Assembly (NCBI GenBank): GCA_017622995.1
Contig: JAGAQA010000041.1
Location: 18,688-82,687 of the forward strand
DNA: 64,000 nucleotides
Reading direction: 5' to 3'
Source of the DNA: Oscillospiraceae bacterium
GTDB lineage: Bacteria; Bacillota; Clostridia; Oscillospirales; Oscillospiraceae
The notes under the pieces are model-generated. The model made no database searches. It was not told where the DNA came from and saw only the letters and a list, made by a program, of their open reading frames with translations. This document shows, piece by piece, positions 42,201-63,395 of this stretch (its first letter is position 1; each line of letters starts with the position of its first letter). The position numbers were made by a program, and so were the translations under genes.

Positions 42201-42647
42201 TCAGCTTTCCATCTGCTTTCCCAGAAAGCCGGCGATGGCTTTGGTCAGACCCTGTTCGCTCTGACCCAGGGGCTTGTCATGTTCTTCCAGCAGGAGCAGG
42301 ACGCTTCCCATCAGGTCCCCCTGAGAAAGGATGGGGGATGCGGCGCCCAGATGGTACTTGCTCTCCCCCTGGGAGGCCTTTATGGGATTGTCGCCCTGCT
42401 GATAGAGATAGTTTTTCCGCTGCTCCATCAGCTTTTCCAGCTCCGGGGAGTTGGGTTTGTCCAACAGCTCCTTCCGGGGTGCCCCATGAAGGGCGATGAT
42501 TCCGTCCCGGTCCGTAATGGCCGTAATGTGCCCCGTGGCGGCGCTGACGGATTCACACATCTGGCTGGCAAATTCCTGCAAATCCCCCATGGGGGAGTAT
42601 TTCCGGAAGATCACGCCCCCGTCCTTTTCCGTGTAAATCTCCAAGGG
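42201..42647 (-). pseudogene. spoVT: spoVT, 3' part (codons 33-180), separated from its start by the element
   Basis: 148 codons matching the C-terminal part of the sporulation regulator SpoVT: EIYTEKDGGVIFRKYSPMGD, then LQEFASQM...GHITAITDRDGIIALHGAPRKE, a GSVLLLL strand and KAIAGFLGKQMES at the end. This is the ligand-sensing domain that in Bacillus modulates late forespore (SigG) genes. It has no start of its own here and is read only as the tail of the recombinase. Joined to codons 1-32 at 63395-63300 it gives 180 residues, against 178 for Bacillus SpoVT. It may be a reversible split rather than a dead gene. Confidence 0.93.
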
Positions 42648-44354
42648 GTCACCGTTACTGATAACATTGACACGGAAAACCTTGTCCTCGTGGTTTTTTG
42701 AGGACTGAATCAGCCGGTTTTCGATATTTTCCGTGCCCGAATTAAAATTTACGGCGTTCTCCTTTTCGCTCACGTGAAGCAGAGCGTCAATGTCCGCCTG
42801 TAAATAGATTTCCAGCCGATCTTCATAGACCTGAATACGCTGGATGATAAGCTCCAAATCGTTTCGGTCAAGGGATTCCTTATTCAGAATGTCTTCAAAC
42901 ACATCCAAGGCAGTCTTTGCCGTTCGGTTAATCTGGATGATGGTGTTACGCTTGTCGGACAGCATGGTGATCTGATGATCCAGCCCCTCAATCTTCTTTT
43001 GCAGGTCGGCTTCCAGTTCGTCGTAGGTTTCCGCCAGCAGTTCCTCCTGTTCCGGGTGCTTCATGATGTCCCGGATGCGCTGCCGCTTGGTGGCTTTCAA
43101 CTCCTCCCGCAGCTGACCCATCACCTGCGCCAGATGGTCGGCGGACTGCTCGGTTTCCAGGACATCCTCGGTTTTCCGTGCCAAATCGGCGTTGAGCTGC
43201 GCCAGCATGGAGCGGGAGTTTTCTTTTACCTTTTTCACATAGAGCTTGAGAAGCTCGTCCAGCTTGTCTACTCTTATATGGTGAGAGGAACAGGCAGCAC
43301 GCCCCCGGCGGTGATAGGTGCCGCAGGTGTAGGCGGGGCTTAAATCCTTGCGGCTCATGGCGAACATGGGACTGCCGCAGTCGCCGCAGAAGAGAAAGCC
43401 GGAGTAAACATTGCCGTATTTCTTCACGCCACGGTAGTTGGCGGTGGAGCGCTTCTCCCGCAACGCCCGGGTGGTGGCGAAGGTGCGGTAATCGATGATG
43501 GGCTGGTGGTGGTTCTCAATGACGATGTGTTCCTCCTCGTCCCGGCGGACATCCTTGCCGTTGATTTTGGCACGGGTATATTTCGCCTGCCGCAGGGTGC
43601 CGATATAGAAATCGTTGTCCAGAATCCCCTGCACCGTCACAATCGCCCAGGCGGCTTTGGTTTTCCGGGTGGTGGTTTCGCCCTCGGCTTCCTTGCGCAT
43701 TTGCTCCGACATCCGGGGGGTGGGAATGCCCTGCTCGGTCAGGTAGTTGGCGATTTTTTTGTAGCCCCAGCCGTGGTTGTTGTAGAGATCAAAAATCTGC
43801 CGCACAACTTCTGCTTCCGTCGGCACGATCTCGAATTCTTTCTGCTTGTTGATGATGTAGCCGTAGGGCGCAGCGCAGAGCCATTTGCCGTCCGCCTGCC
43901 GCCGCCGGATGACATTCTTCACCTTTTTGCTGGTGTCGGTGACAGGCATTTCGTTAATGAGGAACTGGAACTGAATTTTCAGCCAGTCGTCATCGTTGGG
44001 AAAGTCAATGTTGTCGCCGATGGAGATGATCCGCACGCCGGCATCCCGCAAATCCTCCAGCTCCACCAGTCCCCGGCTGTTCCGCCGGGAGAATCGGGAA
44101 AAGTCCTTTACCACCAGAATGTCATACTGATGACGAATCAGACCCTTTCGCATGGCCTGATAGCCTTCCCGCTGTTCAAAGGTATAGCCGGAGCGATCCC
44201 GATCTTCGTAGAATGTCAGGGAGCTTCCCGGGAAGCGGGTATTGACGAAATCCTGAATGATGGCCTTCTGGTTTTCGATGGACACATTGTCCCGATCCAG
44301 TTCCTCATCCACGGAGATACGGCAGTAGCCTGCTATGTCAAAGTGTTCAATCAT
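42201..44354 (-). CDS. Large serine recombinase fused in frame to the C-terminal domain of SpoVT
   Basis: 717 residues. Residues 1-569 are a site-specific serine recombinase: catalytic Ser14 in AGYCRISVDEE, SIENQ, FYEDRDRSGYTFEQREGYQ and VVKDFSRFSRRNS in the catalytic domain. These are followed by the recombinase domain (about 155-260), the zinc ribbon FCGDCGSP...YTCGTYHRRGRAACSSHHI near 340-375 and a coiled-coil region (390-490). From residue 570 (PLEIYTEKDGGVIF) to the end the protein is the GAF-like effector domain of SpoVT. The junction is base 42648. In the excised circle the recombinase would instead end with 25 residues encoded at 63299-63222, giving 594 residues. Start set by AGGAGGTGCAAC before the ATG. 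Confidence 0.92.
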   Translation of the reverse strand: MIEHFDIAGYCRISVDEELDRDNVSIENQKAIIQDFVNTRFPGSSLTFYEDRDRSGYTFEQREGYQAMRKGLIRHQYDILVVKDFSRFSRRNSRGLVELEDLRDAGVRIISIGDNIDFPNDDDWLKIQFQFLINEMPVTDTSKKVKNVIRRRQADGKWLCAAPYGYIINKQKEFEIVPTEAEVVRQIFDLYNNHGWGYKKIANYLTEQGIPTPRMSEQMRKEAEGETTTRKTKAAWAIVTVQGILDNDFYIGTLRQAKYTRAKINGKDVRRDEEEHIVIENHHQPIIDYRTFATTRALREKRSTANYRGVKKYGNVYSGFLFCGDCGSPMFAMSRKDLSPAYTCGTYHRRGRAACSSHHIRVDKLDELLKLYVKKVKENSRSMLAQLNADLARKTEDVLETEQSADHLAQVMGQLREELKATKRQRIRDIMKHPEQEELLAETYDELEADLQKKIEGLDHQITMLSDKRNTIIQINRTAKTALDVFEDILNKESLDRNDLELIIQRIQVYEDRLEIYLQADIDALLHVSEKENAVNFNSGTENIENRLIQSSKNHEDKVFRVNVISNGDPLEIYTEKDGGVIFRKYSPMGDLQEFASQMCESVSAATGHITAITDRDGIIALHGAPRKELLDKPNSPELEKLMEQRKNYLYQQGDNPIKASQGESKYHLGAASPILSQGDLMGSVLLLLEEHDKPLGQSEQGLTKAIAGFLGKQMES
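42632..42668 (-). other. Left attachment junction (spoVT 3' part / element)
   Basis: To the left of 42646 the sequence codes for SpoVT (PLEIY). To the right it codes for the recombinase end (RVNVISNGD). The core GGGTC spans 42646-42650, and the element side reads ACCGTTACTGA (42651-42661), one arm of the attP dyad. Confidence 0.8.
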
Positions 44355-44408
44355 GTTGCACCTCCTGTTCTGATAATATCTATTTGAATATTGATGTTTA
44401 TAGATAAC

Positions 44409-44437
44409 ATTGTATATCATGAATCTACAAATTGCAA
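44409..44437 (-). promoter_or_regulatory. SigA-type promoter of the recombinase
   Basis: On the minus strand TTGCAA (44437-44432), 17-bp spacer, TACAAT (44414-44409), 55 bp before the ATG. The element therefore carries a vegetative-type promoter that reads the recombinase and, while integrated, the SpoVT tail. Confidence 0.65.
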
Positions 44438-44465
44438 GAACTTTTTTCGGGAGTCTGTTGGCAGC

Positions 44466-44506
44466 AAAAGTTACCGCACGCTTTCCCGGCGTGCGGTAAC
44501 TTTTGA
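44466..44506. terminator. Bidirectional terminator between the recombinase and the 87-residue gene
   Basis: Perfect arms AAAAGTTACCGCACGC and GCGTGCGGTAACTTTT around a short loop. T runs are present on both strands. Confidence 0.75.
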
Positions 44507-44519
44507 GACGAGCAGGAAA

Positions 44520-44783
44520 TTACAGCTCCATCTGGGCGGACTTCTGTGCCTTCTCCCGCCGGACTGCCAGCTCTGCACAGCGCTTTTTGTTGTATGCCAA
44601 CAAATCCAGGGTGCTTCGTTGCAAGTCCTCTTTCCCGGAACGGAAGACGGCTACCATATACTTCTGCTTCTTCCATTGGGCATACATGGGTTTCAGGTTC
44701 GCCTGTACAGCAGCATCCTCAGCCTCTTTCCGAGTTAGCCACACCTGAACCAGTTTCTTTGCATCGTCCTGAATAATCTCCAT
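44520..44783 (-). CDS. Small element-borne protein, unknown
   Basis: 87 residues, MEIIQDDAKKLVQVWLTRKEAEDA at the start, mostly helical and basic at the end (VRREKAQKSAQ). The pattern YMVAVFRSGKEDLQRSTLDLLAYNK is reminiscent of small proteins next to serine recombinases in clostridial conjugative elements, but I cannot name the family. The ribosome site AAGGGGG is good. Because excision by serine recombinases normally needs a small directionality factor, this and the next gene are the natural candidates; that is inference. Confidence 0.65.
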   Translation of the reverse strand: MEIIQDDAKKLVQVWLTRKEAEDAAVQANLKPMYAQWKKQKYMVAVFRSGKEDLQRSTLDLLAYNKKRCAELAVRREKAQKSAQMEL

Positions 44784-46259: not shown

Positions 46260-46298
46260 GAGCGAAACAATTTGTGTGCGTAATGCTCCCATTCATTT

Positions 46299-46346: not shown

Positions 46347-46374
46347 AGATGATAAGATAACTGGGAGGTGCCAT

Positions 46375-47679
46375 ATGGATTTCGTGGAAAGTGAAGTTGT
46401 AGAACTTAAGTCCGAAGTGGTCGGGGACATCTGCAAAGAAGTCATTGCCTTTGCCAACACCAGGGGCGGTACGATGTACATCGGCGTTGCGAATGATGGG
46501 CAGGTGGTTGGCATCGAAAATGCTGATCAGGTTATTTTGCAGCTAAACAACATGATTCGGGATTCCATCAAGCCGGATCTTACCATGTTTGTGGGTTATC
46601 AAACCCAAGCGGTTGACGGAAAGCAGATTGTTGCTGTCACGGTTCAGAAAGGCACGGATCGTCCCTACTATCTGGGCAGCAAGGGTCTGAGACCCAACGG
46701 TGTCTATGTCCGCAACGGAACGTCCACCGATCCTGCAACCGATACAGCAATTCGAAAGATGATTAAGGAAACCGACGGGGATTGCTTTGAGGATATGCGG
46801 TCTCTGGAACAGAATCTGACCTTTGATGCAGCAAGTTCCCAGTTTGCAAAGCAGAAAGTTGCCTTTGATGCGTCCAAAATGCAGACATTAGGGTTGGTTT
46901 CTCCAGAGGGGATTTACACCAATGTGGCACTACTGCTGTCCGATCAGTGCGGCAGCACCATCAAGGCAGCTACCTTCTCCGGCTCAGATAAAAGCGATTT
47001 TCAGGATCGGCGGGAGTTCAGCGGCTCTTTGTTCCGGCAGATGGAGGAAGTCTATGCCTATCTGGACATGAGAAATCAGACCCGTGCCACCTTTGAAGGT
47101 CTGTACCGCTTTGACAAACGGGATTATCCTGAAGAAGCTTTGCGGGAAGCGCTGCTCAATTGCCTGGTGCACAGGGACTATTCCTTCAGCGCCAGCACCC
47201 TGATCAGCGTCTATGATGATCGGATCGAGTTCGTATCCGTAGGCGGGCTGCCCACAGGAATTTCTCTGGATGACATCCTTCTTGGGCTTTCTGTTTGCCG
47301 AAACCCCAAGCTGGCAGGGGTGTTTTATCGGCTCAAACTGATTGAAGCTTACGGCACCGGTATGCCCAAAATCCTGAATGCTTATGCCGGAACCGGTTTG
47401 GTGCCAAAGATCGAGGTGACCAGTAATGCCTTCAAGATCACCCTGCCGAACCGAAACGCGGCTGACAGTGGCATCCACTACGAACCTGATCCCGGTAAGA
47501 GCAAAGAGGAACGGATTCTTAGTTTCCTCGCATCCAGGGGCAGCATTGCCCGCAGCGATGCCCAGAAGCTGCTGGGTGTAAGCCAGGCAACTGCCAATCG
47601 GATTCTGAAGCAGATGGTAGCGGATGGTTTGCTCTGCCAGGAGGGCAGCGCAAGAAATACGCGGTACAAAGCAAAATAG
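46375..47679 (+). CDS. AlbA_2 (Schlafen-type) putative transcriptional regulator
   Basis: 434 residues. The N-terminal AlbA_2/Schlafen domain (about 1-120) has ESEVVELKSEVVGDICKEVIAFANTRGG and YIGVANDGQVVGI. The middle region contains EALREALLNCLVHRDYSF and DRIEFVSVGGLP, the ATP-binding-like C-terminal domain of this COG2865 group. The last 60 residues form a winged helix (SRGSIARSDAQKLLGVSQAT). Such proteins are often annotated as regulators or RNA/DNA-binding helicase-like proteins and occur in mobile elements and near defence genes; the activity is not established. ATG at 46375 with GGGAGGTGCCAT. Confidence 0.8.
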   Translation: MDFVESEVVELKSEVVGDICKEVIAFANTRGGTMYIGVANDGQVVGIENADQVILQLNNMIRDSIKPDLTMFVGYQTQAVDGKQIVAVTVQKGTDRPYYLGSKGLRPNGVYVRNGTSTDPATDTAIRKMIKETDGDCFEDMRSLEQNLTFDAASSQFAKQKVAFDASKMQTLGLVSPEGIYTNVALLLSDQCGSTIKAATFSGSDKSDFQDRREFSGSLFRQMEEVYAYLDMRNQTRATFEGLYRFDKRDYPEEALREALLNCLVHRDYSFSASTLISVYDDRIEFVSVGGLPTGISLDDILLGLSVCRNPKLAGVFYRLKLIEAYGTGMPKILNAYAGTGLVPKIEVTSNAFKITLPNRNAADSGIHYEPDPGKSKEERILSFLASRGSIARSDAQKLLGVSQATANRILKQMVADGLLCQEGSARNTRYKAK

Positions 47680-48356: not shown

Positions 48357-50831
48357 TCATAGGTAGTATCCCGTGATGCTCTGGGGACATTTACTGATTG
48401 TCTCCGGAGTACCGCAGGCGACAATCCTCCCGCCTTCTTCCCCGCCGCCGGGTCCCATATCGATGATATAGTCTGCATTTCGGATGACATCCAGGTCATG
48501 TTCAATGACAACGACGGTTGCACCGTTTTGAATCAGAGTCTCAAACACCCTCAGTAGCGTCTGCACATCCAGAGGATGAAGCCCAATGGTTGGCTCGTCA
48601 AAAACGAATACGGAATCCGACTGCTGACGACCCATTTCGCTGGCCAACTTCAGCCGCTGGGCTTCACCACCGGACAGGCTGGGGGTTTCTTCGCCCAGTG
48701 TTAGATATCCCAGGCCCAGGCTTTGCAGCACCTGCAAACGGGATGAGACAACTTTCATATCAGCGCATCTGCATAATGCAGTGTTTATGTCCATATCCAT
48801 CAGACTCGGCAGTGTGAACGTTTCGCCCTTTTTGTTGCGCAGTTTTACGCGGCTTGCTTCCTTCCGGTACCGCGATCCGCCGCAATCCGGGCAAGGAATT
48901 TCCACGTCCGGAAGAAATTGCACATCCAGACTGATTTGACCGGTGCCATCACACACCGGACAGCGAAGATCACCGGTATTGTAGGAAAAATCACCAGCTT
49001 TGTAGCCCAGACGTTTGGCATCTTCGGATTTAGCAAAGAGTTTTCTCAGCTCATCGTGCACATTGGCATAGGTCGCCACAGTAGAACGGACATTGACTCC
49101 GATGGGGGTGGCATCGATCAGCTTTACATGACCGATCCCCTCTGCGTAGAGATGCTTGACGTGTTCCGGCAGTTTTCGGCCTTCCAGCAACGCTTCCAGC
49201 CCAGGAACCAAGCTTTCCAGGACCAAGGTGGTTTTCCCGGAACCGGATACACCGGTCACAACGGTAAGCCTGCCCTTGGGAATGTCTGCTTCCAGAGATT
49301 TTACCGTATGGATAGATCCGGTGGAGAGGTGAATTCTTCCCAGATCGAACAGCGAATCCGCCCCTGCCCGCTGCCGGACAGCCAGCTGCCGCCCTGCCAG
49401 ATAGGGTGCAATCTGAGATGCCGGATGATTCATAATCTCAGCAGTCGTGCCTTGGGCAATAATTCTTCCGCCTTTGGCGCCGGCCTGGGGACCCATTTCG
49501 ATGATATAGTCTGCTTCCGCCAGAATCTGGGTATCGTGATCCACCAGAATCACGGAGTTGCCATCGGCAATCAGATCGTGCATTACGCCGGTGAGTCCTA
49601 CGATGTTGGAAGGATGTAAGCCAATGGAGGGCTCATCCAGTACATACAGCACTCCGGTGGTGCGGTTGCGTACAGAGCGCGCAAGCTGCATCCGCTGTCG
49701 CTCTCCGGTAGACAATGTGGACGCAGCCCGATCCAGCGTCAAATATCCAAGTCCCAGATCCATCAGCCGCTGCGCTGCATTCTGAAAGGACAGGCAGATG
49801 CTCTGCGCCATGGGGCGCATTTCTTCCGGAAGAGATGTCGGAACGCCGTCCACCCATTTTCGCAGCTCTGTTAGTGTCATATGGCAGGCTTCATCCAATG
49901 CGATGCCGCGAATTTTTGGCATTCTGGCGGCAGAGGACAGCCGGGAACCGCGGCATTCCGGACATATATCCTCCTTCAGAAATCTTTCTACCCGCTTCAT
50001 GCCTTTCTCATCCTTTACCTTTGATAGGGCGTTTTCAACGGTATACGTGGCATTGAAATAGGTAAAATCCAGCTCCGTGGCCTGATGGGTATTCTTATTC
50101 ATGTATAGAATGTGCCGTTTTTCAGGGGGGCCGTTGTACACCATTTCTTTTTCCTGATCCGTCAGATTTCGAAAGGGGACGTCGGTCCGTACGCCCATTT
50201 CTCGGCAGATATCTGTCATTAGCGACCACATGAGACTGTTCCATGGAGCTACTGCGCCTTCGTCGATGGTCAGATCCTCATTTGGTACCAGGGTTGTTCG
50301 GTCTACCGTCCGCACAATACCGGTACCATCGCAGCGGCGGCAGGCGCCTCGGCTGTTAAAGGCCAATTCCTCGGCGCTGGGTGCCCAGAAATGCTCGCCG
50401 CACTCCGGGCAAACCAGTTCCTGGCCTGCAGCGACTGCCAGACTGGGCTGCAGTGTGTGCCCATTGGGACAACGATGGTGTGCAAGTCTGGAATACATCA
50501 GCCGGAGGCTGTTCAGCAGTTCCGTTCCGGTGCCAAAAGTGCTCCGAATCCCGGGAACCCCCGGTCGCTGATGCAGGGCAAGCGCTGCCGGTACATACAG
50601 CACCTCGTCAACATCTGCTTTGGCTGCCTGAGTCATCCGACGGCGCGTATAGGCGGACAGAGCTTCCAGATAACGTCGGGAACCTTCTGCGTATAATACG
50701 CCCAGAGCCAGAGAAGATTTCCCAGATCCGGACACACCGGCAATTCCCACAATCTGATTCAGGGGAATGTCAACGTCCACATTTTTTAGATTGTGAACTC
50801 TGGCTCCCCGGATTTTTATTTTATCAATCAT
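48357..50831 (-). CDS. UvrA-like ABC ATPase (UvrA paralogue)
   Basis: 824 residues with the tandem ABC layout of UvrA. ATPase I: GVSGSGKSSLALG near residue 33, signature LSTGERQR near 385, LDEPSIGLHP. ATPase II: GVSGSGKTTLVLE near 540, signature LSGGEAQR near 735, FDEPTIGLHP. Zinc modules are seen at CPECGEHF...CRRCDGTG and CPVCDGTG...CPDCGGSR. It is about 115 residues shorter than housekeeping UvrA and belongs with class II UvrA paralogues, some of which confer resistance to DNA-binding drugs. Being element-borne and alone (no uvrB/uvrC), it may be a resistance or repair cargo. Start MIDKIKIRGARVHNLKNVDV. Confidence 0.88.
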   Translation of the reverse strand: MIDKIKIRGARVHNLKNVDVDIPLNQIVGIAGVSGSGKSSLALGVLYAEGSRRYLEALSAYTRRRMTQAAKADVDEVLYVPAALALHQRPGVPGIRSTFGTGTELLNSLRLMYSRLAHHRCPNGHTLQPSLAVAAGQELVCPECGEHFWAPSAEELAFNSRGACRRCDGTGIVRTVDRTTLVPNEDLTIDEGAVAPWNSLMWSLMTDICREMGVRTDVPFRNLTDQEKEMVYNGPPEKRHILYMNKNTHQATELDFTYFNATYTVENALSKVKDEKGMKRVERFLKEDICPECRGSRLSSAARMPKIRGIALDEACHMTLTELRKWVDGVPTSLPEEMRPMAQSICLSFQNAAQRLMDLGLGYLTLDRAASTLSTGERQRMQLARSVRNRTTGVLYVLDEPSIGLHPSNIVGLTGVMHDLIADGNSVILVDHDTQILAEADYIIEMGPQAGAKGGRIIAQGTTAEIMNHPASQIAPYLAGRQLAVRQRAGADSLFDLGRIHLSTGSIHTVKSLEADIPKGRLTVVTGVSGSGKTTLVLESLVPGLEALLEGRKLPEHVKHLYAEGIGHVKLIDATPIGVNVRSTVATYANVHDELRKLFAKSEDAKRLGYKAGDFSYNTGDLRCPVCDGTGQISLDVQFLPDVEIPCPDCGGSRYRKEASRVKLRNKKGETFTLPSLMDMDINTALCRCADMKVVSSRLQVLQSLGLGYLTLGEETPSLSGGEAQRLKLASEMGRQQSDSVFVFDEPTIGLHPLDVQTLLRVFETLIQNGATVVVIEHDLDVIRNADYIIDMGPGGGEEGGRIVACGTPETISKCPQSITGYYL

Positions 50832-51446: not shown

Positions 51447-51476
51447 AGGGGCTAATAGAAAGGATTGACACTGACG

Positions 51477-52478: not shown

Positions 52479-52485
52479 GGCGTTT

Positions 52486-53412: not shown

Positions 53413-53434
53413 AATCAAAAGTGAGGTGGTTTGA

Positions 53435-53830
53435 ATGAAGAAAGACAGACTGTTGAATCCGGAGATTGTCTCAGCAGTTGCATCGCTTGGTCACACCGAG
53501 TACTTCTGTATTGCAGATTGCGGTCTCCCGATTCCGAAAGGAGTAAAGGTCATAGATGTATCCATTGTAGGAGGCAAGCCGTCGTTTCTGGAACTGGTAG
53601 ATGCCGTAAAAGACGAATTGGTGATTGAATCTACAATCCTTGCTTCTGAAATTGATGAAAAGAATGTTCCTCTTTCCAGAGAAATGGATGCACGTTTCGG
53701 AGACCTGCCCTGCAGGAAAGTTCCACATGAAGAATTCAAAGCGCTGACGAAGGACGCAAAGTGTATAATCCGGACGGGTGAAAATACCTCGTATGCAAAT
53801 GTGATCTTTGTGGGTGGAGTGAATTTCTGA
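53435..53830 (+). CDS. rbsD: D-ribose pyranase
   Basis: Mutarotase converting the pyranose to the furanose form that the kinase uses. 131 residues, MKKDRLLNPEIVSAVASLGHTEYF with the catalytic His near residue 20, CGLPIPKGVKVIDVS near 30, and RTGENTSYANVIFVGGV at the end. The length and all family motifs are intact. It is 22 bp after rbsK. Confidence 0.93.
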   Translation: MKKDRLLNPEIVSAVASLGHTEYFCIADCGLPIPKGVKVIDVSIVGGKPSFLELVDAVKDELVIESTILASEIDEKNVPLSREMDARFGDLPCRKVPHEEFKALTKDAKCIIRTGENTSYANVIFVGGVNF

Positions 53831-53895
53831 TTAACCCGGGCAATAATTTCTGCTGAAAAGCAAAATGTTGTATATTAAAAAAGGAGACGAAAAAA

Positions 53896-54906: not shown

Positions 54907-54917
54907 TATTTTAAATA

Positions 54918-54944
54918 GCCAGGTGCGGCAGCGCCGCACCTGGC
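54918..54944 (+). other. Intergenic mRNA hairpin between rbsB and rbsA
   Basis: Perfect GCCAGGTGCGGC-AGC-GCCGCACCTGGC without a T tail. Hairpins here commonly protect the binding-protein mRNA and lower expression of the downstream transporter genes. Confidence 0.65.
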
Positions 54945-54971
54945 CACGGAGAAAAAGGAGGAGGGCTTTAC

Positions 54972-56471: not shown

Positions 56472-57430
56472 AGCTCAAGTCAAATAAAAATATGTTTGCG
56501 CTGATCATGGATAAATTAGGATCCTGGTCCCTTCTGATTCTGATTGGCGTGGTTATGGCTTTTGCAAACAGCAAATTTCTTACTTCCTCTAACATTTTGA
56601 ATGTTTTGCGGCAGATTGCCGTGGTTACCATTGGCGCTGTCGGCGTGTCTTTCGTCATACTGGGCGGTGGTTTCGACTTGAGTACCGGCATGATTGCAAC
56701 GTTTGCCGGGTGTAACTCGGCAGCGCTGATTGTTAATCATGGATGGCCGATCCTGCCCGCAATGCTGTTTGCCATTGCGATTGGCGTCGTGATCGGTTCT
56801 ATCAACGGCGTGCTGATTACTCACATGAAAATTGCTCCGTTCATCTGTACATTGGGCATGCAGTATGTTGTAAACGGCCTGATTCTGGTGACCACAAAGA
56901 GTGTGCCGATTACCGGGCTTCCTGAGGCATACCTGTATCTTGGACGCGGCTTTATCTTCGACGTATTCCCTGTCCCAGTCGCGATTATGCTTCTGTTTGT
57001 TCTGGTAGGACATATTCTGCTGAAATATACCATTTTTGGCAGATCCATTATTGCTATCGGCGAGAATGAAGTAGCAGCTAAGCTTTCCGGTTTGAATGTG
57101 AACCTGGTGAAGGTTGCCATGTATGCATTCTGCGGCTTCTGCGTCTCCTGTGCCGGCATCGTCCTAGCGGCACGTCTTTCCTCCGGTCAGCCCACCTCCG
57201 GTGCGGACCTCTCCCTGCAAGCAATCGCAGCCGTGTATATCGGCGGTACGTTCCAAGGCAGCGTGGTCAATACCATGGCAGGCGCTCTGGTGTGGGGCTT
57301 TATGAACAATGCACTGAATTTGATGAATGTGAACGCTTACTGGCAGAAGGTTGCGCTGGGCATCATCATTATTATTGCAGTTCTGTTTGACGCATTCCGC
57401 GCAAAGCTGGCCATGCAGAAGAAAAGCTAA
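56468..57430 (+). CDS. rbsC: Ribose-type sugar ABC transporter permease
   Basis: 320 residues, about eight to ten membrane helices. Family motifs: GGGFDLSTGMIATFAG near residue 62 and GENEVAAKLSGLNVNLVKVAMYAFCG near 198 (ATPase contact). LSSGQPTSGADLSLQAIAAVYIGG is found near 238. It forms the sugar channel with RbsA. The start is coupled to the rbsA stop. Confidence 0.92.
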   Translation: MKLKSNKNMFALIMDKLGSWSLLILIGVVMAFANSKFLTSSNILNVLRQIAVVTIGAVGVSFVILGGGFDLSTGMIATFAGCNSAALIVNHGWPILPAMLFAIAIGVVIGSINGVLITHMKIAPFICTLGMQYVVNGLILVTTKSVPITGLPEAYLYLGRGFIFDVFPVPVAIMLLFVLVGHILLKYTIFGRSIIAIGENEVAAKLSGLNVNLVKVAMYAFCGFCVSCAGIVLAARLSSGQPTSGADLSLQAIAAVYIGGTFQGSVVNTMAGALVWGFMNNALNLMNVNAYWQKVALGIIIIIAVLFDAFRAKLAMQKKS

Positions 57431-57449
57431 TTTTGTTTGAGGAAGTAGT

Positions 57450-58190
57450 ATGAAAAAGGCATTTATTTTCTATGGCGGTTGGGAAGGTCACGAGCCGGAT
57501 AAAGAGAGTGCCCGCTTCCAGAGATGGTTGGAAGAGGAAAACTTTGAGGTAACGCGTGTTGATTCGCTGGACCGCTTGGCTGATGGGGAATACATGAAAT
57601 CGTTTGACTTGATTATTCCCTGCTGGACACAGGGTGAACTGCCAGATCCGTGCTGTTTCGGTGTGTCCGACGCAGTGGCGGCAGGAACCGGCTTGGCAGG
57701 TGTACACGGCGGCATGTGCGATGCGTTCCGCTGGAGCGTAGAATGGCAGTATATGACCGGCAGCCAGTGGGTATCTCATCCCGGGGACAAATATCTGCAC
57801 CATATGTCCAGGCTTTCTGAGGAAAATATTCGGTACATGGCGGAGAACTACCCGGAAAACTCTGTTCCTGGTGCGTTTTGGAGAGAATATACTGTGGAAT
57901 TTAAGAAAAATTCCACCTCACCGATTATCGCCGGTATCCCGGATTTTAAAGTGAGAACAGAGCAGTATTACCTGCATTTGGACCCCTGCTGCGAAGTGCT
58001 TGCCACAACCCGTGTTGATTCCGTTGGCCCCCACCGTGCAAACGGTATTGTGGATATGCCTGTGGTTTATACGAAACATTGGGGTGAAGGACGTGTGTTC
58101 TACAGCTCTTTGGGGCATCTGGACAACATCCTTGAAATCCCTGAAGTAGAGACGCTGACAAAAAGAGGATTCCTCTGGGCCAGTCGATAA
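57450..58190 (+). CDS. ThuA-like domain protein
   Basis: 246 residues of the ThuA family (glutamine-amidotransferase-like fold), with FYGGWEGHEPDKESARFQRW at the start, GTGLAGVHGGMCDAFR near residue 75 and VYTKHWGEGRVFYSSLGHLD near the end. ThuA proteins accompany dehydrogenases that oxidise sugars to 3-keto forms (trehalose, sucrose), and the next gene is an MDR dehydrogenase. The reaction itself is not established. It begins 19 bp after the permease gene in the same operon. Confidence 0.82.
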   Translation: MKKAFIFYGGWEGHEPDKESARFQRWLEEENFEVTRVDSLDRLADGEYMKSFDLIIPCWTQGELPDPCCFGVSDAVAAGTGLAGVHGGMCDAFRWSVEWQYMTGSQWVSHPGDKYLHHMSRLSEENIRYMAENYPENSVPGAFWREYTVEFKKNSTSPIIAGIPDFKVRTEQYYLHLDPCCEVLATTRVDSVGPHRANGIVDMPVVYTKHWGEGRVFYSSLGHLDNILEIPEVETLTKRGFLWASR

Positions 58191-58211
58191 ATAAAATAGG
58201 AGGTTATGATT

Positions 58212-59189
58212 ATGTTGGCAAAAGGTGTTTTCGTTGAAGATTATATGAAACTTGGCATCCGGGAATATGACGTACCCGAACCCAAGGGGAATGAGGTCAT
58301 GATCAAGACCATGGCTTGTGGTCTGTGCTGCTGGGATTCCTGGCTGATCCGCGGCGTGAATGCGCCCGGTCCCTACCCCTTCATTATTGGCCATGAGGGC
58401 GTAGGCATTGTCGAGAAAGTCGGTGCGGATGTTACCTCTCTGAAGCCGGGTGACAAGGTGTTCTGCGGCAGCGGCAACAACGAGATGATGTGCGAGTACG
58501 CCACCGTCCCGGAAGCAGGCCTGTGCAAGCTGCCCGATGATACCACGGATTGGGCCAGCGTCGTGTTTGAACCCACCTGCTGTGTCACCAACCTTCTGAA
58601 CATTACAGATATCCATATGGGCGATCACGTCGTTCTGGTCGGTGCCGGATACATGGGCCAGCTGACGCTGCAGGCCTTAACCCGCGCTTCTCAGGCAGGC
58701 AGAATCACCGTGTTCGAGCTGCGCGAGGACAGGCGGAAGATGGCTGAGGCTTACGGTCCCACCGAGGTTCTGGATCCTGAGAGCGAGGCAGGCAAGGCGG
58801 TTATTGCGGAAATCATCGCAAAGGGCGGCGCGGATGTGTGCATCGACTTCGGCGCTTCTGATTCCGGTTTCCATCTGGCAGACTCCATGACGAAGCAGGC
58901 GGGCAAGCTGGTGATTGGTTCCTTCCACCGCAGCGACGTGACCTTTAACGGCACTAAGTGGCATCTGGGTGGCCTGTATGTGTACAACCTGGCGCCCATG
59001 AGCAATCCGCACTTCAAGGAGATCGTACCGAGAACCTATGAAATGATCAAGCGGGGCGTTTTTGAACCGGGCAAGCTTGTTACCCACACGGCCTATTACG
59101 AGGATCTGGATGCCATGCAGGAGATTTTTGCCAAGTCTATTGATAAGACGGACAGCTATATCAAAGGCGTCATCATGTTTACCAGGTAA
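58212..59189 (+). CDS. Zinc-dependent MDR dehydrogenase lacking the structural zinc loop
   Basis: 325 residues of the medium-chain dehydrogenase family. GroES-like part: ACGLCCWDSWLIRG (catalytic zinc Cys) near residue 35 and GHEGVGIVEKVG (His-Glu) near 60; Rossmann part: VLVGAGYMGQLTLQAL near 140. The four-Cys structural zinc loop after residue 85 is absent; the sequence there is GSGNNEMMCEYATVP. It probably oxidises a sugar or polyol. I start it at 58212 since AGGAGG is 8 bp upstream, rather than at the ATG two codons earlier. Confidence 0.82.
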   Translation: MLAKGVFVEDYMKLGIREYDVPEPKGNEVMIKTMACGLCCWDSWLIRGVNAPGPYPFIIGHEGVGIVEKVGADVTSLKPGDKVFCGSGNNEMMCEYATVPEAGLCKLPDDTTDWASVVFEPTCCVTNLLNITDIHMGDHVVLVGAGYMGQLTLQALTRASQAGRITVFELREDRRKMAEAYGPTEVLDPESEAGKAVIAEIIAKGGADVCIDFGASDSGFHLADSMTKQAGKLVIGSFHRSDVTFNGTKWHLGGLYVYNLAPMSNPHFKEIVPRTYEMIKRGVFEPGKLVTHTAYYEDLDAMQEIFAKSIDKTDSYIKGVIMFTR

Positions 59190-59199
59190 ATTTAGAAAC

Positions 59200-59241
59200 A
59201 AGATTCAGCGGTGCATTGTTATGTACTGCTGAATCTTGATG
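59200..59241 (+). other. Intergenic hairpin in the sugar operon
   Basis: AAGATTCAGCGGT...ACTGCTGAATCTT (about 59200-59239), one mismatch and no T run. It may stabilise or process the mRNA between the dehydrogenase and the next gene. Confidence 0.5.
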
Positions 59242-59258
59242 ATTAAAGGAGATTTAAG

Positions 59259-60119
59259 ATGGATTTTCCGAGAACAATGGTCGGCGGTGTATCAATGCCT
59301 CGAATGATTATCGGCTGCAACTGGATTTCCGGATTCAGCCACACCGGCGCAGCAGGAGATTCCATGATCCGAAAAGCCCACGCGGATCCTGCTTCCACGG
59401 CAGCGATTTTTGAGACATTTCTGAATCAGGGAATTGATGCAGTACTGGGTCTTTTTAATGTGGATCCCAATCTGAGAAAAGCGGTGGACATGGCGCAGGA
59501 GCGAACCGGCCGCAAAATGATTATTATTGACGAACCGGTGCTGAATATGGATGATAACGCCATGGCGCGGCATGAGGCGGAACTGGAGATTAAAAAATGC
59601 GCAGCCAACGGCGCAACCTTCTGCCTGCCGCTGCATTCCTGTGTAGAGCAGCTGATGAACAAAAACAAAAGGACCATGGATCGTCTGCCGGATTATCTCG
59701 CCATGATCCGTGATAACGGGATGATTCCTGGCCTGTCTGCGCACATGCCGGAAGTAATTCAATATGCGGATTTGAATGGATACGATGTAGAAACCTATAT
59801 TCAGATCTATAACTGTATGGGCTTCCTGATGCAGGTAGAAATCGAATCGGTAATTAAGATTATCCATAACGCAAAAAAACCCGTCATCACCATCAAGCCC
59901 TGCGCCGCAGGACGGACTACGCCGTTTGTGGGTTTGAATTTCAGCTACAATACGATCCGGGAGCAAGATATGGTCTGCATTGGCTGCTTTAACGAGGAGG
60001 AGGCTGCAGAAGACATCGAGTTTGCCCGCGCTGCCATTGAAAGAAGACTACCTATCAACGCAGGGCGGAACAGCCCCTTGAAGACAGATGTAATCAGTGG
60101 TACAGCAAGCGAAAAATAA
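59259..60119 (+). CDS. Uncharacterised protein of the sugar operon
   Basis: 286 residues, cytoplasmic. The start RTMVGGVSMPRMIIGCNWIS and the alternating pattern (LNQGIDAVLGLF, KMIIIDEPV, GMIPGLSAHMPE, KPVITIKPCAAG) suggest a TIM barrel like aldo-keto reductases or sugar epimerases. I do not recognise the family, and no Tyr-Lys-His tetrad is evident. Conserved-looking acidic and His residues (DEPVLNMDD, LPLHSC) could bind a metal. Its place between the dehydrogenase and the MFS gene suggests a step in the same pathway. Confidence 0.7.
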   Translation: MDFPRTMVGGVSMPRMIIGCNWISGFSHTGAAGDSMIRKAHADPASTAAIFETFLNQGIDAVLGLFNVDPNLRKAVDMAQERTGRKMIIIDEPVLNMDDNAMARHEAELEIKKCAANGATFCLPLHSCVEQLMNKNKRTMDRLPDYLAMIRDNGMIPGLSAHMPEVIQYADLNGYDVETYIQIYNCMGFLMQVEIESVIKIIHNAKKPVITIKPCAAGRTTPFVGLNFSYNTIREQDMVCIGCFNEEEAAEDIEFARAAIERRLPINAGRNSPLKTDVISGTASEK

Positions 60120-60143
60120 ACAGAAAGCGTGTCGGTAAATCAT

Positions 60144-61397
60144 ATGAAAGAGAAAAGAAAACTGAATTATGCCTGGGTCGTTTTTATCAGTTGCATTCTT
60201 TTGAAAATTGGTCTGGGCGGAGTAGTCATGTGCATCGCTGGCAACTTTGTTACCCCTGTTGTTCAGGAATTCGGCTGCACAGTCAGTGCGTTCACGATGC
60301 TCGTCAGCGTGGAAGCCGCAGCTATGGCATTTATGTATACTACAGCTGCAAGAATCATCGCCCGGAGTAAGGTGGGAAAGGTCATGGGCATTGCCGCACT
60401 GGCACAGGTGATCGGTATTGCGCTGATGGCTGCTTATCGTTCTGTGTATCTGTTTTACCTATCTGGCGCAATCATTGGTATCGGTGTGGCATTTACCGGA
60501 TATGTGGCAATTCCTGTCGTGATCAATATGTGGTTTAAGAAAAAGGCGGGAACAGTTCTGGGTATAATTATCGCAGCAGAAAATATTGCCATGATCTTGT
60601 ATACGAAGCTGTCTGCCGTTCTGATCAACGGTTTTGGCTGGCGCGGCGCATATCTGATTCTGGCGGCAATCTGCATGGTCGTCTCGGTTCCCTGCCTGTT
60701 CTTTTTTGTGAAGAGCCCGGAGGAAGCAGGCTGCAAGCCCTACGGCAGCGAGGATCAGATTGACCAGACGCACAGTGAGACGGCAACTCAGGAATGGGGC
60801 GTGGCGAAGAAGCAGGCGGTCCGAATGCCTCTTTTCTATATTGCCTGGTTCACCTGTATGCTGTTCAGCGTCGGCTGCGGTGTGCAGCAGTACATTGCCA
60901 ATTTTGCAACCATGGAATTGAATTGCTCTATTGATTTCGGCGCGAATGCAGCTATGTTTATGAGCTGCGGCTGTGTCATTTGCAGCGTATGCCTGGGATA
61001 TGTTAATGACCGATTCGGTGTTAAAGCGGGATTGGCATGGGGATTTGTGTTTATCGCCTTGGGCTATGGCCTGATGATCACTAGTATTGGAAGCCCCATT
61101 CTCTGCCTGCCGGCATCGTTCTTGGTAGGTCTTGGCGGAAGCATGTATACGGTGCAGTGCCCGCTGCTGGCAAAATCAGTTCTGGGAGAAAAGGACTATT
61201 CCTCCATCTGGTCGCTGATGATGATGGGCAATAGTTTGATTGGTGCGCTGTCTTTCTCGTCCATCGGCCTGTTTTATGATCTGGGCGGCAGCTATATGGG
61301 TGCTTTCCTAATGGCAATCATCCTTTATGGATTGGCACTGGTTATCGGGTCTGTTGCTTTGAATATGAGCAGCAAGCTTCGCAGCGCGAATGCCTGA
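60144..61397 (+). CDS. MFS transporter
   Basis: About 417 residues, twelve predicted helices in two halves with a hydrophilic loop near residues 195-220 (KPYGSEDQIDQTHSETATQE). The loop between helices 2 and 3 has RIIARSKVGKVMG, and the second half repeats it as VNDRFGVKAG, as in the oxalate/monocarboxylate branch of MFS. Since an ABC importer is already present, it may export a product or import a second substrate. The start is uncertain: ATG 60144 (MKEKRKLNYAW) or GTG 60129; neither has a good ribosome site. Confidence 0.83.
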   Translation: MKEKRKLNYAWVVFISCILLKIGLGGVVMCIAGNFVTPVVQEFGCTVSAFTMLVSVEAAAMAFMYTTAARIIARSKVGKVMGIAALAQVIGIALMAAYRSVYLFYLSGAIIGIGVAFTGYVAIPVVINMWFKKKAGTVLGIIIAAENIAMILYTKLSAVLINGFGWRGAYLILAAICMVVSVPCLFFFVKSPEEAGCKPYGSEDQIDQTHSETATQEWGVAKKQAVRMPLFYIAWFTCMLFSVGCGVQQYIANFATMELNCSIDFGANAAMFMSCGCVICSVCLGYVNDRFGVKAGLAWGFVFIALGYGLMITSIGSPILCLPASFLVGLGGSMYTVQCPLLAKSVLGEKDYSSIWSLMMMGNSLIGALSFSSIGLFYDLGGSYMGAFLMAIILYGLALVIGSVALNMSSKLRSANA

Positions 61398-61412
61398 CAG
61401 TGGGAGCAGCTT

Positions 61413-61841
61413 ATGAGTTTACTTAGATCGTTGTTCAAGAGCAGAGAAGAAGTGGAACGCGAGAGAAAAGAGATGGAAAGCACATCCTATCCTTTTGGGG
61501 ACAGGCAGCGCCAAACCATTCTGAATTTGCTAAAGGATATCCTGCCGGAGGAACCGGAAGCTCTTGCGCTAACGATTTTTCTGATTGGGAAAAAGGCTTA
61601 TCAGCAGGACAAGAGTTGTGATACTTTTGATTCTGATCTGCCGCTGAAGGAGCGCCTGCCGAAAACTTTCCGTGCGCTGGGGAAACAGCTCTTCGGCCGG
61701 CACAGAGAGAAGATGGCAAGATATCTGGCGCTGATCATGGCGGACAGCGGGGTGGACGAACAGCTTTGCTATCCGTCAAAGATGGCTTTGCTGCGCACAG
61801 CGGCAGAGCTGGAACCTCTCTGCGGAAAAAAGGGAAAATAA
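61413..61841 (+). CDS. Unknown helical protein at the end of the sugar operon
   Basis: 142 residues, mostly charged helices: LFKSREEVERERKEMESTSY, then RQTILNLLKDILPEEPEALALTIFLIGKKAY and FGRHREKMARYLALIMADSG. No signal peptide or membrane segment, and no family recognised. It follows the MFS gene by 15 bp with GGGAGCAGCTT, so it is co-transcribed. Confidence 0.65.
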   Translation: MSLLRSLFKSREEVERERKEMESTSYPFGDRQRQTILNLLKDILPEEPEALALTIFLIGKKAYQQDKSCDTFDSDLPLKERLPKTFRALGKQLFGRHREKMARYLALIMADSGVDEQLCYPSKMALLRTAAELEPLCGKKGK

Positions 61842-61859
61842 TATGCGCACTGGTGTAAC

Positions 61860-61872
61860 GAAAAAATGTTTC
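61860..61872 (+). promoter_or_regulatory. Degenerate copy of the LacI operator
   Basis: GAAAAAATGTTTC, one mismatch from GAAACRATGTTTC, 60 bp upstream of the exact copy at 61932. It may allow DNA looping between two bound repressors. Confidence 0.5.
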
Positions 61873-61926
61873 GCATATCTTCTATTTACACAAAATATTT
61901 CCCTGATTTAAGTGAATCTTTCTCTC

Positions 61927-61955
61927 TTGATGAAACGATGTTTCTCAAATACTCT
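61927..61955 (+). promoter_or_regulatory. Promoter of the isomerase gene with LacI operator
   Basis: TTGATG (61927-61932), 17-bp spacer, TACTCT (61950-61955). The palindrome GAAACGATGTTTC (61932-61944) sits exactly as in the lacI promoter. Confidence 0.65.
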
Positions 61956-62010
61956 TGTGTTAAGGGTGGCAGAAACCTGTATCAAATACGCTAAGAAAGG
62001 ATGGAACAAT

Positions 62011-62850
62011 ATGAAAATCGGATATACCGGATGGACTTGGATATCCAATGAGTTTGACAACTGGGAGCCTATCAATGACCGGCATAAAGAGAATTTTGAA
62101 CGCTTTCTTCGGGATGTCTCTGATCTGGGCTACGAAACTGTAGAAAACTTCAACTGGATTGCAGACTACTACGCAGACGACATTGAGGGTTTCAAAGCGG
62201 TGGTTGCCAAGTACGGTCTGAAGTTTGAAAACCTGTATTTCTACTTCAGTAACGACCCCGAAAAGGACTATCAGGATGCGCTGCATTATCTGGAGTTCAT
62301 GAAGGCGGTGGACGCACATTATATGAATATGCAAGGCGTTATGTGGAAGGATCAGCCGTTTGATCGGCCCCTGGACGAAAAGACAATCCTTTCCTATGCA
62401 GAGCTGTCCAATAAGATCGGCAAAGCCTGTAAGGAAGCGGGGGTTAAGGCTTGTATGCATCCCCACGCCAATACGGCTTTGTTCCACCAGGATGCCATTG
62501 ACCTGTATATGGCCAATACGGATCCTGAATATGTGTATCTTTGCATTGACACAGCACATACTACCCTTGCGGGCATGGACGCTCCCACATTAGTTCGCCA
62601 GTACGGCAAGCGTGTCGGATATATGCACCTGAAGGATATAGATCCAGATGCGAGCCTGAATCCAGAGTGGCCCATGAAACGGTTCCGCCCCTTGGGTTAT
62701 GGCTGCGTGGACTTCAAGGGGGTGGTGAACGAGTTGAGAAATGCCGGTTATAATGGTATCCTGTGTGTAGAACTGGACTATCAGCCAGTTTGCAACTACC
62801 GTTCTGCCCAGATCAGTAGGGATTACCTGCACAATGTACTGGGATTTTAG
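62011..62850 (+). CDS. Sugar phosphate isomerase/epimerase-like TIM barrel protein
   Basis: 279 residues of the xylose-isomerase-like TIM barrel superfamily (IolE/inosose dehydratase-type). Metal site residues: ETVENFNWI (Glu near 37), ACMHPHANTA (His near 150), CIDTAHTTLAG (Asp/His near 182), GYMHLKDID (His near 208) and VELDY (Glu near 260). It is likely to epimerise, isomerise or dehydrate a keto-sugar. Ribosome site AAAGGATGGAACAAT. It has its own LacI-type promoter yet belongs with the operon before it. Confidence 0.85.
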   Translation: MKIGYTGWTWISNEFDNWEPINDRHKENFERFLRDVSDLGYETVENFNWIADYYADDIEGFKAVVAKYGLKFENLYFYFSNDPEKDYQDALHYLEFMKAVDAHYMNMQGVMWKDQPFDRPLDEKTILSYAELSNKIGKACKEAGVKACMHPHANTALFHQDAIDLYMANTDPEYVYLCIDTAHTTLAGMDAPTLVRQYGKRVGYMHLKDIDPDASLNPEWPMKRFRPLGYGCVDFKGVVNELRNAGYNGILCVELDYQPVCNYRSAQISRDYLHNVLGF

Positions 62851-62863
62851 TTTATGTTTTGAC

Positions 62864-62905
62864 GCAACACAGCCCACCGGTCGAAAGATCGGTGGGCTGT
62901 GTTGC
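62864..62905. terminator. Strong hairpin ending the sugar region
   Basis: Perfect 16-bp arms GCAACACAGCCCACCG (62864-62879) and CGGTGGGCTGTGTTGC (62890-62905). T runs are short, but it sits between convergent genes and probably ends both transcripts. Confidence 0.65.
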
Positions 62906-62915
62906 GCCTATTCCG

Positions 62916-63161
62916 TTAATCCATCAGTCGGTGTTCCGGTGTGCCCTGTAGGTACTTCTCAATCTCACCACTCAGCACCAGCTGGGCATACTCCAATGGC
63001 TTATTGTAGATCAGCCAATCCAGCTCTGGCCGCTGAAACATGGTGTCGGCAGCTTCATTTTCCACGGCAATGGTATCAATGGCGACCATGCTGCCGTCGG
63101 AAAAGCACAGCTCTACGCAGGCTGTGTCCATGTTAAATTCGCAAGAAATGATTTCTTTCAC
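62916..63161 (-). CDS. DUF6061-like small protein
   Basis: 81 residues, MKEIISCEFNMDTACVELCFSDGSMVAID then VENEAADTMFQRPELDWLIY and LEYAQLVLSGEIEKYL. This closely matches my memory of the DUF6061 family, common in clostridial conjugative elements; function unknown. The right-end position inside the element supports that. A plausible ribosome site GGGGTGAAAGAA precedes it. Confidence 0.7.
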   Translation of the reverse strand: MKEIISCEFNMDTACVELCFSDGSMVAIDTIAVENEAADTMFQRPELDWLIYNKPLEYAQLVLSGEIEKYLQGTPEHRLMD

Positions 63162-63221
63162 CCCGTTTTACCCCTTTCGTATTTGCACGGTTTTGGCGTC
63201 CTAGGTTGTCACTATGTACAA

Positions 63222-63395
63222 CTACCACCCTCTGCGTTTGGCTAAATCCAACATGCTAAAACAGTATTTTTCCCACTGTGTCAATGATGTCAGTGACGGG
63301 TCGCCCTCCCGGATTCGAAGGGTTCTCCGGATCTCCTTCGGAATGACAATTCTCCCCAAATCATCCACCCGGCGGACAATGCCTGTAGCTTTCAT
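63222..63395 (-). pseudogene. spoVT: spoVT, 5' part (codons 1-33) plus 24 element-encoded codons
   Basis: Starts MKATGIVRRVDDLGRIVIPK, continues EIRRTLRIREGDP and is the start of the SpoVT DNA-binding (AbrB-like) domain. After codon 33 the frame enters the element and adds 24 residues (SLTSLTQWEKYCF...) before the stop at 63222; those are the native tail of the recombinase in the excised circle. The AbrB-type domain needs about 50 residues, so the 57-residue product is probably inactive. Ribosome site AGGAGAGGAAAAGAT. The other 148 codons are at 42647-42201. Confidence 0.93.
63284..63316 (-). other. Right attachment junction (element / spoVT 5' part)
   Basis: Core GGGTC at 63298-63302. The element side to the left reads TCAGTGAC (63290-63297), the second arm of the attP dyad; the spoVT side to the right reads GCCCTCCCGGATTCG. 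Confidence 0.8.

What the first reader, a model, noticed from the sequence alone, without database searches (positions are those of the whole stretch)
42201..63395. A 20.65-kb serine-recombinase element splits spoVT and could rebuild it on excision
Seen: codons 1-33 of spoVT at 63395-63297 and codons 33-180 at 42647-42201, same strand, same frame, separated by the element. The joined product is 180 residues (Bacillus SpoVT is 178). Known: developmental intervening elements such as skin in sigK are removed by serine recombinases during sporulation. Inference: this is either a reversible developmental switch on a late-sporulation regulator or a simple disruption. Unlike skin, it carries a full sugar-utilisation region.
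Basis: partly seen in the sequence, partly recalled or inferred. Interest (0 to 1): 0.95.

Follow-up and report, generated by a model that had tools for sequence, protein, structure and literature searches.

The report
Mobile element splitting sporulation gene spoVT
A mobile DNA element sits inside a gut bacterium's spore-control gene spoVT in such a way that its own recombinase gene is fused to half of spoVT, and exact removal of the element would rebuild the gene; related bacteria use the same insertion point again and again.

Summary
Confirmed: spoVT is split at codon 33 by a 20,652-bp element, both halves open and in frame, with no second copy found in the genome. The element belongs to a large-serine-recombinase family found in 62 of 400 genomes (29 of 106 genera) sampled from the window's family. 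The attachment site lies inside the recombinase's reading frame, so integration swaps C-termini: the recombinase loses a 24-residue tail and is fused to SpoVT 34-180, and SpoVT 1-33 receives the tail. The 38 distinct fusions read are open to SpoVT's stop. In three species that seem to have inherited the insertion vertically, the SpoVT half shows no amino-acid change at dS about 0.1, which argues for a gene that is rebuilt by excision. Excision itself was not observed. Two related assemblies break exactly at the core, as expected if alternative junctions coexist. At least 15 relatives carry 22 recombinase-less cassettes at the same core; in two of them the incoming unit replaced spoVT's promoter and 5' end. 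SpoVT is a forespore, hence germ-line, regulator, unlike sigK and gerE.

The parts
63297..63395 (-). spoVT codons 1-33 (N33)
42201..42644 (-). spoVT codons 34-180 plus stop, SpoVT_C domain (PF15714)
42201..44354 (-). single 717-aa frame: large serine recombinase (Resolvase, Recombinase, Zn_ribbon_recom) fused in frame to SpoVT 34-180; the listed ORF starts at 44420
63225..63395 (-). 57-aa frame N33::tail (SpoVT 1-33 plus a 24-residue tail that would be the recombinase's own C-terminus in the circle); stop at 63224-63222
63297..63305 (-). attL core GGCGACCCG, central dinucleotide GA at 63302-63301
42645..42653 (-). attR core GGTGACCCC, central dinucleotide GA at 42650-42649
42654..42686 (-). 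P arm of the attachment site, inside the recombinase coding sequence
   Evidence: inverted-repeat match to the P' arm: mean 0.59 at the symmetric register against 0.16-0.35 at 12 other offsets, 16 elements
63262..63296 (-). P' arm of the attachment site, inside the tail coding sequence
63427..63457 (-). spoVT promoter resembling sigmaF/sigmaG sites (GCATAAT / CAAACACTA); similarity among upstream copies starts about here
   Evidence: the consensus is recalled
44409..44437 (-). sigmaA-like recombinase promoter TTGCAA-17-TACAAT; TACAAT lies within 110 nt upstream in 14 of 21 relatives compared, absent in 7
   Evidence: the consensus is recalled
44520..44783 (-). 87-aa ORF with a homologue upstream of the recombinase in 20 of 21 relatives compared; candidate accessory or directionality factor (inference)
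62916..63161 (-). DUF6061 ORF just inside attL; found in 2 of 22 inner ends compared (window and G089)
46372..47679 (+). cargo: SLFN_AlbA_2 protein
48357..50831 (-). cargo: UvrA-like ATPase
51465..62850 (+). cargo: sugar-utilisation region (LacI regulator, PfkB kinase, RbsD/FucU, binding protein, ABC ATPase and permease, ThuA, Zn-dehydrogenase, MFS, AP_endonuc_2 TIM barrel, two ORFs without a Pfam family)

Best explanation
It is one copy of a family of integrative elements whose large serine recombinase uses codon 33 of spoVT as its chromosomal site. attP lies inside the recombinase gene. In the free circle the recombinase would read on into its own 24-residue tail (594 aa); in the chromosome it reads on into SpoVT 34-180 (717 aa), while the spoVT promoter lies before a 57-aa SpoVT(1-33)::tail frame. 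Recombination across the GA core would excise the element and restore a normal 180-aa SpoVT. Shown: the split, the core, the inverted-repeat attP arms, the conservation of the fusion, horizontal spread, and purifying selection on the SpoVT half in one insertion that seems vertically inherited. Inferred: that the element leaves in the lineage that makes spores, so that both halves stay selected, and then re-integrates or is re-acquired. Whether excision is programmed in the forespore or sporadic is open; I lean slightly to programmed.
For: No second spoVT. 38 distinct fusions open to SpoVT's stop. G127/G130/G131: SpoVT C-half dN 0 in 3 of 3 pairs at dS 0.10-0.12, recombinase dS 0.10-0.15; neighbouring host frames dS 0.13-0.19 (four, G130-G127) and 0.16-0.21 (two, G130-G131); shared outer flanks at attR for G130-G127 and at attL for G130-G131. 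N33 intact in 17 of 17 genomes where both N33 and the fusion were found. Window and G096 recombinases are 97% identical while their SpoVT halves are 78%, so elements move between species to this base. Contigs of G101 and G094 end at the last core base, with exact overlaps of 55 and 141 nt to the next contig. The lineage keeps spore genes: SpoIVA in 127 of 136 genomes, SASP in 115 of 136; among the 21 with the recombinase, 21 and 19. SpoVT is required for heat-resistant spores in C. difficile (PMC3789822, passages).
Against: No excised or circular junction was seen for the window, and no complete circle anywhere; no recombinase was matched in viral contigs (six short patterns) or plasmids. In 4 of the 21 genus genomes with the fusion (G011, G033, G127, G128) no N33 was found, so there the gene may be incomplete or the assembly has a gap. 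The recombinase promoter is not sporulation-like. Only one clade of the eight groups compared shows vertical inheritance; in 27 of 36 pairs recombinase dS is lower than SpoVT dS, so many insertions are recent. In G101 the attR contig is not broken, so its alternative junction could be another tail. Excision in the forespore would remove the element from the germ line.
Confidence: 0.6

Rival explanations
1. Plain disruption: a mobile element uses a conserved codon as target, spoVT is lost, and intact halves only reflect recent insertion.
For: Recombinase dS is below SpoVT dS in 27 of 36 pairs, so many insertions are young. In 4 of 21 genomes with the fusion no N33 was found. No excision was observed. 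The recombinase promoter looks vegetative.
Against: No amino-acid change in the SpoVT C-half across three species that share the insertion. No broken SpoVT half in 38 fusions or in the 17 type-1 N33 copies found.
Confidence: 0.17
2. The fusion itself is the selected product: the SpoVT sensor domain regulates or stabilises the recombinase, or the fusion still acts as a regulator, and spoVT need not be rebuilt.
For: The frame runs open through attP in the 38 fusions, and the C-half is under strong constraint.
Against: It does not explain constraint on the displaced N33, although that evidence is weak (0 of 17 broken against 6 of 28 displaced copies in genomes with intact spoVT; Fisher 0.046 one-sided, 0.069 two-sided). 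The AbrB domain spans residues 8-49 of SpoVT, so the fusion lacks most of the DNA-binding domain.
Confidence: 0.15
3. Sporadic excision (a variant of the best explanation): an equilibrium of integrated and free cells exists in growth and only element-free cells complete sporulation, with no developmental control.
For: sigmaA-like recombinase promoter; assembly breaks at the core in two samples.
Against: No frequency data; the breaks could reflect strain mixtures.
Confidence: 0.35

Closest known systems
skin (sigK), skinCd, gin (gerE), vfbin, SPbeta (spsM), yin (yabG): sporulation-gene intervening elements
   Same: A large serine recombinase lies in the element; a sporulation gene is split in frame; a short common core would allow precise rebuilding. 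As in gin (PMC5595907, passages), no phage gene was recognised. As in skinCd (PMC5025042, passages), the recombinase promoter looks sigmaA-type.
   Different: The target spoVT is a forespore gene (PMC3789822, passages), whereas sigK and gerE act in the mother cell. attP lies inside the recombinase frame, so integration fuses recombinase to host protein. Excision is untested. The yin and SPbeta papers were seen in the listing with the start of the abstract only; vfbin only as named in a passage.
Mycobacteriophage BPs integration-dependent immunity (attP inside the repressor gene)
   Same: Integration changes the C-terminus of an element protein because attP lies in its coding sequence (PMC4557955, abstract).
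   Different: There the repressor is shortened and stabilised; here the recombinase itself exchanges a tail for a host domain.
Integron gene cassettes (recalled comparison)
   Same: Relatives carry small, mostly one-gene units in tandem, bounded by a recombination core, without a local recombinase.
   Different: The core is a serine-recombinase site; each cassette ends in a copy of promoter plus 5' end of spoVT; a recombinase acting in trans has not been found.
TnpX and SPbeta YokA large serine recombinases
   Same: Solved relatives by sequence over the recombinase part.
   Different: Neither is known to me to be fused to a host protein by its own integration.

Membership tests
Large serine recombinase | Resolvase N-terminal, Recombinase and zinc-ribbon domains | tested here: met
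   PF00239, PF07508, PF13408 over their cut-offs
Large serine recombinase | attP made of inverted arms around a non-palindromic dinucleotide, core shared with attB | tested here: met
   16 elements (not all independent), match 0.59 at the symmetric register, centre GA; core in intact genes
Sporulation-gene intervening element | splits a sporulation gene in frame so that exact excision restores it | tested here: met
Sporulation-gene intervening element | excises during sporulation and the gene is then needed | not testable with these tools
   no reads or cultures; only selection and assembly breaks
Sporulation-gene intervening element | target gene acts in the terminal mother cell (true of the examples read; perhaps not defining) | tested here: inconclusive
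   spoVT is sigmaF/sigmaG forespore-expressed in C. difficile (PMC3789822, passages) and the promoter here resembles such sites; expression in this species is unknown
Prophage | phage structural or replication genes, or phage relatives | tested here: not met
   no phage family among 18 element ORFs scanned with Pfam (PHROGs not run); no viral contig matched; against this, two unverified faecal virome contigs carry relatives
Integron (for cassette arrays in relatives) | tyrosine integrase IntI with attI | tested here: inconclusive
   the site is of serine-recombinase type; the element's recombinase was not found in the array genomes; IntI itself was not searched
Integron (for cassette arrays in relatives) | tandem small cassettes sharing a recombination site | tested here: met
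   22 cassettes in 15 genomes; P' motif with at most 2 mismatches at the same place in 19 of 22

The most novel reading that the evidence does not exclude
The recombinase sets its own direction by swapping its C-terminus: the circle form with the conserved tail integrates, the chromosomal form fused to SpoVT 34-180 holds or excises, and in the forespore the spoVT promoter makes the 57-aa SpoVT(1-33)::tail peptide, which supplies the missing tail and triggers excision just when SpoVT is needed, with re-integration after germination. spoVT would also be a cassette platform in which arriving units replace the promoter and first 33 codons.
Probability: 0.2. Interest if true: 0.95.

Novelty: new variant of a known kind. 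Interest (0 to 1): 0.85.

Why it matters
A mobile element inside a forespore regulator raises a testable question: can a germ-line gene be rebuilt by excision and re-split after germination? A recombinase whose C-terminus is exchanged by its own reaction would be a new way to make recombination depend on its state, of use for directional recombinase tools. The same codon also receives small cassettes that bring a promoter and 5' end for spoVT, a possible serine-recombinase counterpart of integrons in common gut bacteria.

Tried and rejected
Second spoVT copy: none. Viral origin: no viral contig matched six short patterns, no plasmid at 1e-60; two short unverified faecal virome contigs carry relatives: L250 stops inside the recombinase just before the core (565 residues, ending KVFR), L251 carries the fusion. 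Cognate recombinase for the recombinase-less arrays: the family search at 1e-100 found none in those genomes; PF07508 gave 61 matches in 14 array genomes, of which 30 loci were looked at by their longest frame, and none of the frames shown ends in core and tail (in at least one locus the longest frame was not the recombinase). G069 had no PF07508 match at 1e-6. REC-side P arm at the right end of cassettes: none in 22, only weak scattered hits, so how cassettes acquired promoter plus N33 stays unexplained; homologous recombination and duplication were considered and none is favoured. DUF6061 as a universal directionality factor rejected (2 of 22). Sporulation promoter for the recombinase: not seen. 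Recombinases without SpoVT half: L104 (decayed), L073 (279-aa piece), L074 and L075 (pieces with stops). L129 is a different three-recombinase element at about codon 10.

Dropped rows and caveats: the 38 fusions were chosen by an upstream frame of over 300 codons or by the recombinase end motif, and copies with an identical SpoVT half were counted once; four are cut by a contig or locus end upstream. One search used only tails joined to a full codon 33 and left out two spurious starts (47 tails; the G082 locus counted twice as L034 and L150); frameshifted N copies such as L154 and one of L141 are not among them. Its type labels put G084 with type 1 although that genome has an intact spoVT, and G087, G123, G129, G132 by tail only; the counts taken here are relabelled (17 type-1 with the fusion in the same genome, 28 displaced in genomes with intact spoVT; G071, the four tail-only genomes and extra degenerate copies in G082, G101 and G130 left out). 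G128 was left out of the vertical clade after its values were seen (SpoVT dS 0.32-0.44, dN/dS 0.02-0.05, recombinase dS 0.14-0.16). Pairs are not independent. One search printed another frame for 4 of 29 loci, so the fusion was read in 25 of 29. Minus-strand coordinates printed are not converted and were not used.
Full report
OBSERVATION. spoVT codons 1-33 are at 63395-63297 and codons 34-180 at 42644-42201, both on the minus strand. The own genome gave no other match. The halves share the core GG(C/T)GACCC; joined they give 180 residues, which match the SpoVT family about as well as an intact relative does (211.5 and 215.7 bits, both under the curated cut-off of 235.9). The element is 20,652 bp from core centre to core centre.

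THE FUSION. The frame 42201-44354 is one protein: Resolvase, Recombinase and zinc-ribbon domains followed by SpoVT_C. Its solved relatives are SpoVT over the C-terminal part and the SPbeta recombinase YokA and TnpX over the rest. In relatives the switch from recombinase to SpoVT occurs at the same base. Reading through the circle junction gives a 594-aa recombinase ending NVISNGDPSLTSLTQWEKYCFSMLDLAKRRGW. So attP is inside the recombinase gene. Its two arms form an inverted repeat: mean match 0.59 at the symmetric register against 0.16-0.35 at twelve other offsets, over 16 elements, with GA at the centre.

THE TAIL IS CODING. The 47 tails taken (those joined to a complete codon 33) are open and stop after 23-29 codons. 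In codons 1-10, which overlap the attP arm, pN/pS is 0.86 in the set labelled type 1; in codons 11-22 it is 0.17 (0.69 and 0.31 in the set labelled type 2). I read this as DNA constraint next to the core and protein constraint beyond it. Pairs are not independent.

FAMILY. In the window's genus 21 of 136 genomes have this recombinase at E 1e-100 or better, and in a sample of the family 62 of 400 genomes, 29 of 106 genera, at 1e-90. A scan of named genomes gave 55 loci, some matched by the SpoVT part alone, including Pseudoflavonifractor isolates and Candidatus Faecousia records. Of all loci held at that point, 38 distinct fusions, counted once per SpoVT half, were open to SpoVT's stop; of 29 further loci from the family search, 25 could be read and those 25 are fused, one cut off just after the core. 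Recombinases without a SpoVT half exist but are pieces or decayed: L104, L073, L074, L075. Several recombinases have shorter open frames and were not read.

MOBILITY. Window and G096 recombinases are 97% identical while their SpoVT C-halves are 78%; in 27 of 36 pairs dS is lower in the recombinase than in the SpoVT half. The cargo next to attL differs among most of 22 inner ends. Here the cargo is a sugar-utilisation region with an SLFN_AlbA_2 protein and a UvrA-like ATPase.

IS spoVT DEAD? In G127, G130 and G131 the insertion appears inherited vertically. Outer flanks are shared at attR for G130-G127 and at attL for G130-G131. Recombinase dS is 0.10-0.15 and SpoVT-half dS 0.10-0.12; neighbouring host frames have dS 0.13-0.19 (four, G130-G127) and 0.16-0.21 (two, G130-G131). 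The SpoVT half has no nonsynonymous difference in 3 of 3 pairs. G128, also close in the recombinase, was left out because its SpoVT half is more diverged (dS 0.32-0.44, dN/dS 0.02-0.05). N33 is intact in 17 of 17 genomes where it was found together with the fusion; in the other 4 of 21 genomes with the fusion (G011, G033, G127, G128) no N33 was found. Of displaced copies in genomes with an intact spoVT, 22 of 28 are intact (Fisher 0.046 one-sided, 0.069 two-sided), so this contrast is weak. SpoIVA is found in 127 of 136 genus genomes and SASP in 115 of 136; of the 21 with the recombinase, in 21 and 19.

ASSEMBLY BREAKS. G101 contig C25 ends at the last core base and C79 begins with the same 55 nt and continues into a tail. 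G094 contig C125 ends at the last core base and C11 begins with the same 141 nt and continues into SpoVT codon 34. Overlaps of this kind arise where an assembly graph branches (recalled), so in these samples N33 probably has more than one continuation. A strain mixture would do the same, and the attR contig of G101 is not broken.

CASSETTES IN RELATIVES. At least 15 genomes of the genus carry, upstream of an intact spoVT, one to five further copies of promoter plus codons 1-33 joined to a tail: 22 cassettes of 0.57-12 kb. Most small ones have one main gene; of ten genes scanned four matched a family over its cut-off: an acyltransferase, an Abi_2 protein, a DUF6273 protein and an S15 peptidase. 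G044 and G038 share a gene 79% identical over 170 residues. The P' motif sits at the same place in 19 of 22; one of the three misses has its core shifted by a deletion. The element's recombinase was not found in these genomes, nor a frame ending in core and tail among the 30 of 61 PF07508 matches looked at in 14 of them. In G121 and G118 the displaced copy has a promoter like those of the other type-A genomes, whereas the intact gene has a promoter 0.95 and 0.97 identical to that of G025, whose own SpoVT half is not among the six closest to either; G121's SpoVT half is closest to genomes with type-A promoters (0.90 and 0.89). For G118 the closest SpoVT halves are of mixed promoter type. Hence, most clearly in G121, promoter plus N33 arrived with the cassette and was joined to the resident C-half at the core. 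In G117 the left end resembles the window's element but the right end is a second copy of promoter plus N33, 98.8% identical to the first.

HOW IT LIKELY WORKS. The recombinase has a sigmaA-like promoter here; TACAAT lies close upstream in 14 of 21 relatives compared and is absent in 7. For skinCd a sigmaA promoter is reported, with a separate directionality factor that sets the time (PMC5025042, passages). The spoVT promoter resembles sigmaF/sigmaG sites (consensus recalled), and C. difficile spoVT depends on both and is needed for heat-resistant spores (PMC3789822, passages). In the integrated state that promoter would drive the 57-aa N33::tail frame in the forespore. This peptide or the 87-aa protein could be the directionality factor; both are inferences. 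Because the forespore is the germ line, the element must re-integrate or be lost after each spore.

COMPARISON WITH PRINT. Five searches of the held open-access library matched 33, 36, 83, 91 and 220 papers, of which 20, 20, 12, 12 and 12 were listed; none of those listed is, by title and start of abstract, about an interrupted spoVT or such cassettes. Most subscription papers and preprints are not held. The nearest are the intervening elements (gin, PMC5595907, passages) and mycobacteriophage BPs, where attP lies in the repressor gene (PMC4557955, abstract).

VERDICT. The structure is certain, rebuilding by excision is likely but unobserved, and its developmental timing is open.

Noticed in passing
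63505-63947 and on to the window end: CRISPR-like array, 7 repeats of 37 nt at 67-69 nt spacing found in 63400-64000, directly upstream of the spoVT promoter.
   Followed up: partly
L129 6626-12375: In another Oscillospiraceae contig three large serine recombinases lie beside spoVT interrupted at about codon 10, a second kind of element at the same gene.
   Followed up: partly
L044-L050, L134, L141, L154, L155, L160: Small cassettes upstream of intact spoVT, several with the gene on the opposite strand next to the spoVT promoter.
   Followed up: partly
L250 (MT839487.1), L251 (MT836658.1): Two unverified human faecal virome contigs carry relatives of the recombinase; one stops inside the recombinase just before the core, the other carries a recombinase::SpoVT fusion.
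   Followed up: partly
L109, L110 (G103, G089): Truncated recombinase pieces (about 180 codons, with stops) outside spoVT next to copies of the 87-aa ORF, apparently relics.
   Followed up: no
L292 1151-1249: G130 has a second, more diverged N33::tail frame (N33 91% identical) on another contig with a different upstream sequence.
   Followed up: no
L045: Palindromic repeats lie between spoVT promoter and ribosome site in the N33 copies of G070.
   Followed up: no
L034 623-706; L284 1395-1463: Degenerate extra copies of the SpoVT 5' piece in G082 and G101, perhaps scars of older insertions.
   Followed up: no
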